From Dactylosporangium fulvum (GTDB taxonomy: Bacteria; Actinomycetota; Actinomycetes; Mycobacteriales; Micromonosporaceae): a stretch of DNA of 64,000 nucleotides. The position numbers and the translations under genes were made by a program. Shown here one piece after another: positions 1 to 6,054 of the stretch (position 1 is its first letter; every line of letters starts with the position of its first letter). The notes under the pieces are model-generated. The model did not search any database, was not told where the DNA came from, and worked only from the letters and a program-made list of their open reading frames with translations. Location: assembly GCF_025137375.1 (NCBI RefSeq), contig NZ_CP073720.1, forward strand, positions 3,000,501 to 3,064,500. Reading direction: 5' to 3'.

Positions 1-368
1 CGGTGTCGGTGCCGGCCCCGGCGCGTCCCGGCGCCGGGACGCCGTGGCTGGCGCACCGCCCGCTGTGGGAGATCACCCGCGAGCCGGCACGGGACCGGGT
101 GACCGTGATGCTGGGCGACGAGACCAGCGCGGTCCTGCCGAGCGGCGGTGTGCGGGTGGACGCCGCCAACCGCGTCTCGGCCGGCACGGACCGGGAGGCG
201 TCAGCCGTGACGCGGGTCGAGGGCACGGCCGACACGACCGCCGTGCTGTCCACCGGCGAGCGGGTCCGCACGACCGTCCGGCTGCGGCTGACCCCGGAGG
301 CCGGCAGCGCCGACGCCCGGGTCACCGTCGACGGGGCGGAGGTCCTGCGCCACCGGTGGGATTTCTGA
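1..368 (+). CDS. C-terminal fragment of a CocE/NonD-family (X-Pro dipeptidyl-peptidase-like) hydrolase
   Basis: The frame is open from the window edge to a TGA at 366-368, so only about 121 C-terminal residues are visible and the start is outside. The fragment is beta-rich and reads like the C-terminal jelly-roll of CocE/NonD serine hydrolases: an 'RPLWEI' segment, then 'VTVMLGD', 'LPSGGVRVDAANRVSAG' and a final 'VTVDGAEVLRHRWDF'. The catalytic alpha/beta-hydrolase part is not in the window, so substrate and activity cannot be judged. The last 168 bp overlap the end of the convergent MFS gene. Family assignment is by recalled resemblance only. Confidence 0.5.
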   Translation, partial: VSVPAPARPGAGTPWLAHRPLWEITREPARDRVTVMLGDETSAVLPSGGVRVDAANRVSAGTDREASAVTRVEGTADTTAVLSTGERVRTTVRLRLTPEAGSADARVTVDGAEVLRHRWDF

Positions 369-1625
369 CCGGGCCGCCGGATCCCGGATCCGGGCGCAGA
401 GCACCGCCGCGGCGACCGCCGCCAGCGCGGCCCCGGTGAAGAACACCCGGTACCCCGGGATCGTCCCGGCGCCGGCGGGCGCGGCCCCGGCCGTCGCGAC
501 CGCGAGCGCGGCCAGCACGGCAAGACCCGCCCCGCCGCCGAGCTGGCCCGCCGTCTGATAGCCGGCGGTGGCCAGCCCGGCCCGTCGCGGCACCGCCGTG
601 GCCGCCAGCGTCACCGGCACCGACTGCGCGCCGAAGCCGAACGCCAGCACGCCGAGGGCCGCGACCGGCCACACCGCGGGTGCCTGCGCGGTCATCGGGA
701 CCAGGGCCAGGATGCCCCCGGCCGTGACCGTCGAGCCGGCCACGGCGAGGCGCCACGGCGCGACCCGCCGCAGCAGCGGTGGCGCCGCCGCCGAGCCGGC
801 CACGATCCCCAGGCTCAGCGGCAGCAGCAACAGGCCGGCGGTGACCGCGTCGAAGCGGAGCACCTCCTGCAGCCACAGGGTGCTCGCGTAGCTCACTCCC
901 ACCAGCGCCCCGCAGGAGAGCGCCGTCGCCGCACACGCGGCCGCGACCCGCCGGGCCGGGAACGGGGACCGGTCCGGTGCCCCGGCGCCGGGCGCCGGCC
1001 CGGTGCCGGACCGCAGGAGCCGTACCGCGGCGAGCGCGGTCGCCGCGCACACCAGCGCGGGGAGCCAGAACAGCGAGGTCCAGCCGAGCAGCGCGGTGCC
1101 GAGCCCGCCGAGCACCGGGCCGATGGCCACGGCGGCGGCGCCGGCCGCACCCCACACCGCCAGCACCCGGGCCCGCTCGGCCGCGGACCGGGTCGCCGCC
1201 GTCGCCACCGCGAGTGCGGCCGGGCTGAACAGCGCCCCGCCGGCGCCCTGCACCGCCCGCCCGGCGAACAGGGCGCCGGCGTCCCCGGCGAGCCCGCACA
1301 GCACACAACCCGCGGTGAACAGCGCCATGCCGGCGACGAACGGCACCCTGGGCCCGGCCCGGTCCGCGACGAGCCCGCCGAGGAACAGGCAGCCGCCGAA
1401 CACGAGGGTGTAGCTGTCGACGACCCAGGGCAGCTGCGCCGGGTCGATCCGCAGGTCGTGCCGCATCACCGGCAGCGCCACGTTGACGATCGTCGCGTCG
1501 GTGAGCACGACGAAGTTCGCCACACACGCCATGAACACGGTGGCCCGCCGCCGTCCGGCCGTCAGCGCCGTCAGCGCCGTCAGCTCCGCCGGTGCCGCCG
1601 GTGCGGTCCGGGCCGGTGTCGTCAC
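201..1625 (-). CDS. MFS drug-efflux-type transporter of the small NRPS operon
   Basis: About 474 residues with many hydrophobic helices, beginning after a polar leader. The segment 'VANFVVLTDATIVNVALPVM' and the loop 'GLVADRAGPRVPFVAG' are typical of DHA-type MFS exporters. It is the last gene of a four-gene minus-strand operon. Its GTG start at 1625 overlaps the TGA of the condensation-domain gene in a GTGA arrangement; an adjacent GTG at 1628 is an alternative. Placement suggests it exports the operon's product; that is inference. The last 55 or so residues after the final helix are polar and run antisense to the neighbouring hydrolase gene, so a long convergent overlap is real unless an unseen frameshift exists. 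Confidence 0.85.
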   Translation of the reverse strand: MTTPARTAPAAPAELTALTALTAGRRRATVFMACVANFVVLTDATIVNVALPVMRHDLRIDPAQLPWVVDSYTLVFGGCLFLGGLVADRAGPRVPFVAGMALFTAGCVLCGLAGDAGALFAGRAVQGAGGALFSPAALAVATAATRSAAERARVLAVWGAAGAAAVAIGPVLGGLGTALLGWTSLFWLPALVCAATALAAVRLLRSGTGPAPGAGAPDRSPFPARRVAAACAATALSCGALVGVSYASTLWLQEVLRFDAVTAGLLLLPLSLGIVAGSAAAPPLLRRVAPWRLAVAGSTVTAGGILALVPMTAQAPAVWPVAALGVLAFGFGAQSVPVTLAATAVPRRAGLATAGYQTAGQLGGGAGLAVLAALAVATAGAAPAGAGTIPGYRVFFTGAALAAVAAAVLCARIRDPAARSEIPPVAQDLRPVDGDPGVGAAGLRGQPQPDGRADPLAGGQHGGRVGRALDPRHG

Positions 1626-4300: not shown

Positions 4301-6054
4301 GCGGTCCTACCTTCAAGAGCCGGAAGAACCCCGCCGCCCGCCGCGGGCGCGGCGTCCACTCGCGCGGCGAACTCCCGCAGGCTGGTGCTGTCGAGCAGGT
4401 CCCGGACCGTGACCTTGCGGCCGAGCTCCTCCGACAGCTCGCTGATCACCTCCATCGCCGCCAGGGACGCCCCGCCGAGCTGCAGGAAGTCGTCGCTCGC
4501 GGAGATCTGGTCGAGATCGAGCGCCACCGACCACAGCTCGGCGGCCCGGACCTCCGTCGGCGTCCGCGGCGGCTCGTAGGGTCGCGCACCTACGTACTGC
4601 TCCAGATCCTTGCGGAGCTGCCGCTTGTCGACCTTGCCGATCATGTTGCGCGGCATGTCGTCGACCACCACGATCCGCAGCGGTGCGGCGGCGCCCTGCC
4701 GCTCGCGGGCGAACTCCTGCAGGGCGGCGACGTCCAGGCCGGGTCGCGCCCGCACGGCGGCCATGACGCACTCGGTGAGCACGGGATGCGGCACGCCGCA
4801 CACCGCGGCCTCCACGACGCCCGGGAACTCCATCAGCGACGCCTCGACGTCCAATGTGGACACGTTGAGCCCGCCGGTGTTGACGAGGTCGGGGTTGCGG
4901 TCGACCAGATAGAAGTAGCCCTCGGTGTCGACGATGCCGATGTCCCCGGTCCGGGTCCACCCGCCGTCGAGGAACACCGCCGAGTCCGCGGTCTCGCCGT
5001 CGTACCGGCGCTGCGGCGCGTCGCTGCGCAACTGGACGTCGCCGGCCACGCCGGGCGGGGCCACGCCGCCGTCCGGCAGGACGATGCGCACCTCGGAGCC
5101 CGCCGCGGGCCGGCCGAGCGAACGGGGCCGGTTACGGTCGTAGTCGGTGGCCATCCGGCGCGGCCAGCACTCGGTCGTCGAGTAGACGTTGCGGATGCGG
5201 GCCGTCGGGAAGAGTTCGGCGAGGGCCTGCAACGTGGCCGGGTGGATCGGGGCGCTGGTGGTGCGGACCTGTTCGACGCTGCTCAGGTCGTACCGCTGCC
5301 GCGCACCGGCGGAGATCAGCGCGATCGCCATCGCGGGCACGAGCACCAGGTCCGTGGGACGGTAGCGGGCGACGGCCTCGAGGACCTCCGCCGGGACGAA
5401 CTGCGGCAGTGTGAGCGTGCGGTGCGGGCCGGGACCGAGGGGTTGTACGAGCAGGCCCTGGCCGACGGTCGTGCCCGGCGGCAGCGCGTGCAGCGCGGTA
5501 CGCGGTCGGTGCGCCCGGGAGCGCATGAGGGGGAACAGCAGGTTCTCGTGCGTCGCGACGACACCCTTCGGTACTCCGGTGGTCCCGGACGTGTAGATGA
5601 TCTCGGCGTCGTCCGTGGGCGACACCGGCACGGCGAGCGGCGTGTCCGGCTGTCCAGCGAGCAGGTCGGCCACGGTGCTCCGCTCGGCGTCGACGAGATC
5701 GCTGTCGCCGACGACGAGCACCGACCGCGACGCGTGGAAGGCCGCCGTGGCCTGCTCGCGCCCCGCGGACGGGGACACCGGCACGGCGACGGCGCCCGCC
5801 TTGAGTACACCGGCCCATGCGATGGCGTAGTCCGTCCAGTACCGGGACGAGACGTTGAGCAGGACACGGGATCCGGGCGTCACGCCGCGCGCCTGCAGCC
5901 CGCGGGCGGCGGCGTCAGAGGCGGCGTTCCACCGGCCGAAGGTGAGCTCGGCCGCTCCCGCCGTCTGGTGCGCGATCGTGTCGGGCCACTGCGTCGCGCG
6001 CAGTCGCAACTGGCCGGGAATTGTCCATTGCGCCACATCGTTGGTTTGCGTCAC
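4297..6054 (-). CDS. Adenylation domain fused to a carrier protein (A-PCP), first gene of the mini-NRPS operon
   Basis: 585 residues. An adenylate-forming domain carries 'IYTSGTTGVPKG' (A3, about 153-164), 'NVYSTTE' (A5), 'TGDIGIVDTEGYFYLVDRNPDL' (A7/A8) and a C-terminal 'MPRNMIGKVDKRQLRK' with the conserved Lys. A carrier domain follows, with Ser530 in 'LGGASLAAME' as the phosphopantetheine attachment site. The A8 loop reads 'NTGGLNVS', closer to acyl-CoA-ligase-like enzymes than to classical amino-acid A domains, so the activated acid may be an aryl or acyl acid. The GTG start at 6054 has GGGAG about 9 nt upstream. It is the lead gene of the operon, preceded by a 407-bp region. Substrate cannot be read with confidence by eye. 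Confidence 0.85.
   Translation of the reverse strand: MTQTNDVAQWTIPGQLRLRATQWPDTIAHQTAGAAELTFGRWNAASDAAARGLQARGVTPGSRVLLNVSSRYWTDYAIAWAGVLKAGAVAVPVSPSAGREQATAAFHASRSVLVVGDSDLVDAERSTVADLLAGQPDTPLAVPVSPTDDAEIIYTSGTTGVPKGVVATHENLLFPLMRSRAHRPRTALHALPPGTTVGQGLLVQPLGPGPHRTLTLPQFVPAEVLEAVARYRPTDLVLVPAMAIALISAGARQRYDLSSVEQVRTTSAPIHPATLQALAELFPTARIRNVYSTTECWPRRMATDYDRNRPRSLGRPAAGSEVRIVLPDGGVAPPGVAGDVQLRSDAPQRRYDGETADSAVFLDGGWTRTGDIGIVDTEGYFYLVDRNPDLVNTGGLNVSTLDVEASLMEFPGVVEAAVCGVPHPVLTECVMAAVRARPGLDVAALQEFARERQGAAAPLRIVVVDDMPRNMIGKVDKRQLRKDLEQYVGARPYEPPRTPTEVRAAELWSVALDLDQISASDDFLQLGGASLAAMEVISELSEELGRKVTVRDLLDSTSLREFAARVDAAPAAGGGVLPALEGRTA

What the first reader, a model, noticed from the sequence alone, without database searches (positions are those of the whole stretch)
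201..6054. Minimal NRPS locus: A-PCP plus two stand-alone condensation proteins
Four tightly coupled genes give activation, tethering, two C-type reactions and export, with no thioesterase and no other module. One C protein has the normal HHLIFDG, the other HHTISDL. The A domain looks acyl-ligase-like. A product such as an N-acyl or aryl amide, or an ester, seems likely.
Basis: partly seen in the sequence, partly recalled or inferred. Interest (0 to 1): 0.6.

Follow-up and report, generated by a model that had tools for sequence, protein, structure and literature searches.

The report
Acyl-conjugate make, export, recapture locus
Four bacterial genes that probably join an acid to a small molecule and pump the product out sit, in three genomes of two families, beside genes for an importer, a cocaine-esterase-like hydrolase and a repressor, which suggests that the cells make a compound, release it, take it back and cut it up.

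Summary
In detail: window 201-6054 (-) carries A-PCP, two free-standing condensation proteins (HHTISDL, HHLIFDG) and an MFS exporter, tightly packed. The A domain is acyl-ligase-like; the Asp that anchors an amino acid's alpha-amine is Gly. One scan of public genomes found two orthologous loci, in Streptacidiphilus carbonis and S. jeojiense. In all three genomes the four genes adjoin a second block: a CocE/S15 hydrolase, an SBP_bac_5 binding protein, Opp/Nik-type ABC importer genes and a LacI regulator (73% identical); a second S15 hydrolase is present in two of three. A conserved LacI-type operator (GAAGTGCTTYG) lies between hydrolase and binding protein in all three, and beside LacI homologues in five of five other Streptomycetaceae loci; it is absent in front of the biosynthetic operon. 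Best reading: acyl loading on the PCP, transfer by C1/C2 to a small amine or alcohol, export, re-import and intracellular cleavage. Acyl group, acceptor and purpose (metallophore, signal, private nutrient, self-protected antibiotic) are unknown. The papers searched describe nothing like it. New variant of a known kind.

The parts
4297..6054 (-). A-PCP protein (585 aa): acyl-ligase-like adenylation domain with C-terminal carrier domain
   Evidence: Pfam AMP-binding, AMP-binding_C, PP-binding; orthologs 65-66% identical in two Streptacidiphilus genomes
4357..4539 (-). PCP domain (aa 506-566), attachment serine in GGAS (S530)
   Evidence: PF00550 6.3e-12; S530 invariant in 3 of 3
2996..4300 (-). 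C1, free-standing condensation protein (434 aa)
   Evidence: PF00668 1.8e-39; orthologs 55-56% identical
3866..3886 (-). C1 active-site motif HHTISDL (HHAVSDL in both orthologs)
1622..2965 (-). C2, free-standing condensation protein (447 aa)
   Evidence: PF00668 7.8e-45; orthologs 58% identical
2516..2536 (-). C2 active-site motif HHLIFDG (HHLVFDG in both orthologs)
201..1625 (-). MFS exporter ORF (474 aa); last ~50 aa probably not real coding
   Evidence: PF07690 8.5e-44; ortholog in L060 12734-13993, no counterpart of the tail
3..368 (+). 3' end of S15b, CocE/S15-family hydrolase (613 aa, begins left of the window; L011 17028-18869)
   Evidence: PF02129 1.3e-48, PepX_C 8.8e-19; CocE_NonD 5.7e-66

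Best explanation
The locus makes, exports, recaptures and cleaves an acylated small molecule. Inferred steps: (1) the A domain adenylates a carboxylic acid without an alpha-amine in the usual place and loads it on its own PCP; (2) C2 and C1 transfer it (or successive acyl units) to free small nucleophiles, forming amide or ester bonds, which also release the product, so no thioesterase is needed; (3) the MFS protein exports the conjugate; (4) an SBP_bac_5 lipoprotein and Opp/Nik-type ABC importer bring it, or a metal complex of it, back; (5) S15/CocE-like hydrolases without an evident signal peptide cleave it in the cytoplasm; (6) a LacI-family repressor controls steps 4-5 through the operator between S15a and the SBP gene. 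Shown by sequence: gene content, synteny in three genomes, intact catalytic motifs, conserved operator. Not shown: any substrate, and that the imported compound is the exported one.
For: Same two blocks side by side in the host and S. jeojiense: A-PCP, C1, C2, MFS, S15a (50%), SBP (62%), permease-ATPase (62-65%), ATPase (70%), LacI (73%), S15b (51%). S. carbonis carries them on two contigs, one ending in C2 and one in the MFS gene, without S15b. The second block is inverted relative to the first between the two lineages yet still adjacent. A-domain alpha-amine Asp is Gly. HHxxxD intact in 3 of 3 for each C. S15 motifs GxSY, GWxDxF, GPWxH in 5 of 5 proteins examined. Operator GAAGTGCTTYG in the S15a-SBP gap of 3 of 3 loci, expected 0.00 in 200 shuffles of L011, and beside the LacI homologue in 5 of 5 Streptomycetaceae loci. 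SBP resembles AgaA, YliB and other peptide or opine binders.
Against: The operator is not in front of the A-PCP operon and has no exact match in the window, so making and retaking are not shown to be co-regulated by LacI. LacI proteins usually sense sugars or nucleosides (recalled). S15b is missing in S. carbonis. Only three genomes are known to carry both blocks, two of one genus, so co-transfer without shared function is possible. In G704, at what looks like the same chromosomal site, the A gene lacks a PCP and the A10 lysine. No known metabolite or structure supports any substrate.
Confidence: 0.5

Rival explanations
1. Metallophore: the conjugate is a metal chelator; MFS exports it, the Opp/Nik-type importer retrieves the metal complex, and S15 hydrolases free the metal by cleaving the ligand, as esterases do for some siderophores. 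(A special case of the best explanation.)
For: MFS export plus SBP_bac_5 importer is the transport logic of staphylopine-type metallophores (recalled; one search gave a search listing only). NikA is the best NCBIfam model for the SBP, though far below its cut-off (109.7 of 393 bits).
Against: NikA and CntA models score far below cut-off; the best solved relatives are peptide or opine binders, NikA weaker. The regulator is LacI-type, not a metal repressor; no obvious iron, zinc or nickel box was seen by eye in the printed promoter regions, and no systematic scan was run. No catechol, hydroxamate or opine-dehydrogenase domain in the conserved proteins scanned.
Confidence: 0.2
2. Two neighbouring modules with separate jobs: a small acyl-amide or ester product with exporter, and a catabolic operon for exogenous esters or peptides (SBP, ABC, CocE-like esterases, LacI), travelling together by transfer.
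For: Separate transcription units; the LacI operator is found only at the import/hydrolysis block. CocE-like esterases and LacI fit catabolism.
Against: Both blocks stay adjacent in two families of Actinomycetota despite inversion and 50-73% identity; no genome was seen with only one block intact, although only limited sets were searched.
Confidence: 0.27
3. Antibiotic-type product with self-protection: MFS and S15 hydrolases remove or inactivate the product in the producer.
For: MFS of the drug-efflux DHA2 kind (below cut-offs); hydrolases next to biosynthesis.
Against: A dedicated importer and LacI control of the hydrolase are not expected for self-protection.
Confidence: 0.13
4. C1 is catalytically dead or structural because of HHxxxDL; only C2 works. 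(Compatible with the best explanation in other respects.)
For: The Gly after Asp is Leu in 3 of 3 C1 orthologs.
Against: Both His and Asp are kept; constraint is like C2's; fatty-acid-amide C domains that use free amines carry (D/H)HxxxDS, so non-Gly at this place is compatible with activity (PMC13142362, passages).
Confidence: 0.15

Closest known systems
Gut fatty acid amide clusters (OaaA, OaaACP, OaaC; PMC13142362, abstract and passages read)
   Same: Acyl-activating A, carrier and free-standing C that passes the acyl group to a free small amine; no thioesterase or further module; non-Gly residue after the motif Asp (as in C1).
   Different: A and carrier are separate proteins there, with one C bearing (D/H)HxxxDS; here A-PCP is fused, there are two C proteins (HHxxxDL, HHxxxDG), plus exporter, importer, S15 hydrolases and LacI. 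Sequences were not compared directly.
Free-standing C enzymes of the VibH and SgcC5 kind
   Same: About 450-aa free-standing C proteins with HHxxxD; C1 and C2 match chain 4znm (1.6e-17, 1.6e-19), which I recall to be SgcC5, an ester-forming C enzyme (named as such in PMC4425429, passages).
   Different: Low similarity; 1l5a (recalled as VibH) is matched only by C2 (7.4e-5). Partner genes of enediyne or vibriobactin pathways are absent from the conserved set.
Pyrrolamide (congocidine, netropsin) clusters (PMC4047045, passages)
   Same: Free-standing PCP and two free-standing C domains in a Streptomyces cluster with no large assembly line.
   Different: No amidohydrolase (Cgc14-like) or pyrrole-precursor genes in the conserved set; importer and S15 hydrolases are extra.
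NRPS starter modules of the acyl ligase-PCP-C kind
   Same: Closest relatives of the A domain outside orthologs, about 38-43% identity in 20 fetched stretches.
   Different: There the C domain follows in cis or nearby and feeds a long assembly line; C1 and C2 fall outside those C clades (quick tree).
Opine-type export-import systems (staphylopine; Agrobacterium opine uptake; both largely recalled)
   Same: Synthesis linked to an exporter and an SBP_bac_5 importer; the host SBP's best single-sequence solved match is AgaA (3.9e-26).
   Different: No opine dehydrogenase; NRPS-type synthesis; S15 hydrolases and LacI instead.

Membership tests
Fatty acid amide (FAA) NRPS-like clusters | A domain activates a non-amino carboxylic acid | tested here: inconclusive
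   Asp to Gly200 and acyl-CoA-ligase-like best models fit; fatty acid not shown; pocket motif STTE(C/S)WPRR differs from TSTEAAPA-like motifs of the starter modules
Fatty acid amide (FAA) NRPS-like clusters | A, carrier and C as three separate proteins | tested here: not met
   A and PCP are fused; two C proteins
Fatty acid amide (FAA) NRPS-like clusters | (D/H)HxxxDS motif in C | tested here: not met
   HHxxxDL and HHxxxDG in 3 of 3 orthologs each
Free-standing condensation enzymes (VibH, SgcC5 type) | Stand-alone Condensation-family protein with HHxxxD | tested here: met
Free-standing condensation enzymes (VibH, SgcC5 type) | Acylation of a free, non-carrier-bound acceptor | not testable with these tools
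   Only the absence of a second A or PCP in the conserved proteins suggests it
Pyrrolamide clusters | Amidohydrolase and pyrrole-precursor genes with the C/PCP genes | tested here: not met
   No such domain among the conserved-set proteins scanned by Pfam
PapA-type or wax-ester acyltransferases | PapA_C or wax-ester-synthase Pfam domain | tested here: not met
   Only PF00668 reached 1e-3 for C1 and C2; no phylogeny with PapA was made
Opine-type metallophore systems | Nicotianamine-synthase-like and opine-dehydrogenase genes | tested here: not met
   None among the conserved proteins scanned
Opine-type metallophore systems | MFS exporter plus SBP_bac_5 ABC importer | tested here: met
CocE/NonD (S15) hydrolases | CocE_NonD model above curated cut-off and Ser-Asp-His motifs | tested here: met
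   216.6 and 223.7 bits against 66.3; motifs in 5 of 5
C domains that follow acyl ligase-PCP starters | C1 and C2 inside the clades of those C domains | tested here: not met
   C1 and C2 form their own pair (SH-aLRT 98) in an 86-row quick tree; long branches, careful search unfinished

The most novel reading that the evidence does not exclude
An opine-like closed loop run by NRPS-type enzymes in free-living Actinomycetota: the cell secretes an acyl conjugate made by A-PCP/C1/C2 that kin with the matching importer, CocE-like hydrolase and LacI sensor can retrieve and split, serving as a private nutrient, metal carrier or signal. The bonds made by two C proteins could match cleavage by two S15 hydrolases where both are present.
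Probability: 0.25. Interest if true: 0.72.

Novelty: new variant of a known kind. Interest (0 to 1): 0.5.

Why it matters
If right, it links a minimal NRPS-type acyl-transfer pathway to a dedicated recapture and cleavage system, which would predict a recoverable exometabolite with its own binding protein and repressor. The LacI operator gives a ready reporter: the inducer of SBP expression should be the product or its cleavage fragment. It also gives a pair of free-standing C proteins of a separate lineage, one with HHxxxDL, for testing what the residue after the motif Asp does.

Tried and rejected
Ortholog hunt: C1 (E up to 1e-45) in 300 family genomes gave only the host itself, 1 of 300; C2 and C1 profiles in 325 class genomes each gave only the host, 1 of 325 each. 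In these three searches only 5 first-look candidates per genome were scored, so misses are possible. C1 at 1e-30 in 7 genus genomes matched the host and, at 35-38%, large NRPS frames of one other genome. A-PCP profile: 2 of 396 phylum genomes at 1e-120, the second (G534) with different neighbours; 1 of 21 in G534's family; 3 of 14 in the genus of S. jeojiense. Plasmids: A 5 of 72,556 records, none over 80% covered; C2 none.

G704 as a remodelled version (A gene followed by a hexapeptide transferase, ABC-2 exporter, LacI 48%, sugar-type ABC importer and an alpha/beta-hydrolase-like gene) looked like a parallel system, but its A has Arg for Lys in the A3 and A10 motifs and no PCP, so I treat it as a probable relic and do not count it as support.

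LacI homologues at 49-54% in five other Streptomycetaceae genomes (8 of 297 genomes matched, the three Streptacidiphilus-genus ones included) lie in other contexts, beside a short-chain-dehydrogenase-like gene (by eye, no search) in four of five (L082-L085; not in L086), without the A, C or S15 genes; used only for the operator.

The AlphaFold model of A-PCP from three sequences was poor (mean pLDDT 41.2) and was not used; no fold search was run. The A-domain specificity code could not be read to a substrate. C-domain tree: quick method only, the careful search did not finish; rows were dropped before it (fragments under 380 profile positions, hits under 75 bits, and two sets of overlapping copies). 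PapA phylogeny not done. Literature searches for this gene set: (search listings); none described it.
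Full report
Check of the observation. Pfam gives AMP-binding, AMP-binding_C and PP-binding for the first, Condensation for C1 (1.8e-39) and C2 (7.8e-45), and MFS_1 for the fourth. The motifs HHTISDL and HHLIFDG are real. The last ~50 codons of the MFS ORF have no counterpart in its S. jeojiense ortholog and overlap the end of a convergent gene.

The host. The window lies at 3000501-3064500 of a single 10.49-Mb contig. The Condensation model gave 56 matches in that genome; apart from these two proteins the nearest on the table starts at 3151650, nearly 150 kb away. The host's genus is not named by the tools; Dactylosporangium (Micromonosporaceae) is only my guess from genome sizes.

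Orthologs. A scan of one genome per species (84,980 species) with C1 found two relatives: S. carbonis (55%) and S. jeojiense (54%). Both carry A-PCP, C1 and C2 in the same order (over full alignments A-PCP is 65-66% identical, C1 55-56%, C2 58%). Searches of 300 family, 396 phylum and twice 325 class genomes found no further full locus, with the limit that only a few candidates per genome were scored.

The conserved unit is larger than the finding. Left of the window (L011, genome 2982000-3001500) lie S15a (longest ORF L011 8514-10640 -; its true start must be lower, since the ORF runs over the SBP ORF's start), an SBP_bac_5 gene (10564-12240 +), a stretch where a first permease is expected, a permease-ATPase fusion (13211-15148), an ATPase (15010-16029), LacI (15935-17023) and S15b (17028-18869), whose 3' end enters the window at 3-368. 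I found no clean ORF for the first permease in the host with my ORF script; it is clear in S. jeojiense (L060 18001-18951) and S. carbonis (L081 18440-19390). In S. jeojiense the MFS gene is followed by S15a, then SBP, permease, permease-ATPase, ATPase, LacI and S15b. Identities to the host: S15a 50%, SBP 62%, permease-ATPase 62-65%, ATPase 70%, LacI 73%, S15b 51%. In S. carbonis one contig ends in C2 and another carries LacI, ATPase, permease genes, SBP, S15a and then part of an MFS gene at its end; a genome search with S15b found only the S15a place, so S15b is missing. The second block is turned round between host and S. jeojiense, yet adjacent in both.

What the enzymes look like. A domain: best NCBIfam models are acyl-CoA ligases, none above cut-off. 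In the profile alignment to gramicidin synthase, the Asp that binds the alpha-amine of amino acids is aligned with Gly200 (that this Asp has that role is established knowledge, recalled). The A10 context PRNM(I/L)GK(V/I)DKR is intact in 3 of 3. Outside the orthologs the nearest proteins are starter modules in family genomes (68 of 300 genomes have a match at 1e-60, the host included). I fetched 20 stretches around such matches, one of them the host's own paralog; matched identities there are 37.6-43.5%. All 20 carry HA(F/L) followed by GT or GS and a TSTE or SSTE motif with mostly small residues after it, whereas the three orthologs here share LPPGTTVGQG and STTE(C/S)WPRR, so the acid is probably not the one those starters use.

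C1 and C2: HHxxxD is kept in 3 of 3 orthologs each; the next residue is Leu in all C1 and Gly in all C2. In an 86-row quick tree with C domains of the host and of the starter-module loci, C1 and C2 are each one clade and sister to each other (98), outside the clades of starter-following C domains. Branches are long and the careful search did not finish, so this is only suggestive. Free-standing C enzymes that pass acyl groups to free amines often have (D/H)HxxxDS (PMC13142362, abstract and passages), so C1's missing Gly does not by itself argue for inactivity.

Hydrolases, importer, regulator. S15a and S15b score 216.6 and 223.7 bits against the CocE_NonD cut-off of 66.3; their strongest solved relatives are cocaine esterases; Ser, Asp and His motifs are present in 5 of 5 sequences. 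No signal peptide is seen by eye at their N-termini; no predictor was run. The host SBP matches AgaA best (3.9e-26), then a peptide SBP and YliB; NikA is weaker. With the three-ortholog profile, an uncharacterised ABC SBP (5u4o) comes first, then the peptide SBP and AgaA. LacI is closest to sugar or nucleoside regulators, below all cut-offs.

Operator. A palindromic GAAGTGCTTYG lies in the S15a-SBP gap once in the host and twice in each Streptacidiphilus, just before a TTGAC box. Shuffled L011 gave none in 200. Of 103 loci, 15 hold it, several of which are overlapping copies of one place; the distinct ones are the three S15a-SBP gaps and the neighbourhood of the LacI homologue in 5 of 5 other Streptomycetaceae loci. 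It has no exact match in the window (one match with one mismatch, 0.82 expected), so the A-PCP operon is probably controlled otherwise.

Mechanism. Taken together: acyl loading, transfer to a free acceptor by C1 and C2 with release, export, recapture, intracellular cleavage, with LacI control of recapture. Gene content, synteny, motifs and operator are shown; every substrate, and the identity of exported and imported compound, is inference. Linkage across two families despite inversion is the main argument that the blocks belong together; the separate regulation and the small number of genomes are the main arguments against.

Comparison and novelty. The enzymatic core works like fatty-acid-amide clusters and free-standing C pathways but fails membership features of the FAA kind (fused A-PCP, motif). 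The combination with SBP_bac_5 importer, S15 hydrolases and LacI was not found in the searches made (listings only; subscription journals are mostly not held). I rate it a new variant of a known kind, interest 0.5.

Noticed in passing
L072 7601-9232 (-), L088; genome G704: Third genome of the Streptacidiphilus genus has a 62%-identical A gene without PCP and with Arg for Lys in A3 and A10, followed by a hexapeptide transferase, ABC-2 exporter, LacI (48%), sugar-type ABC importer and an alpha/beta-hydrolase-like gene: relic or remodelled pathway.
   Followed up: partly
L067 7656-13376; genome G534: A 44%-identical A-PCP in a 3.5-Mb genome of the same phylum sits beside genes that by eye look like an aspartyl/asparaginyl-tRNA synthetase paralog, a glycosyltransferase and a class III aminotransferase, with an NRPS module further on.
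   Followed up: no
L082-L086 (LacI neighbourhoods): The LacI subfamily with operator GAAGTGCTTYG occurs in other Streptomycetaceae; in four of five loci (L082-L085) it is next to a short-chain-dehydrogenase-like gene (by eye), suggesting a small regulon of its own.
   Followed up: partly
L057 8278-11839 (genome 7476277-7479838): The same host has another acyl ligase (41% identical to this A) flanked by two Condensation-family genes, one on the opposite strand, near its large NRPS region.
   Followed up: no
window 6462-7205 (-): TetR-family regulator upstream of A-PCP in the host; none was seen at this place in S. jeojiense, so it is probably not part of the conserved unit.
   Followed up: partly
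window 47791-55084: A run of genes that by N-terminal sequence look like aminotransferases, an enolase-superfamily protein, an oxidoreductase and a sugar-type ABC importer; no search was run.
   Followed up: no
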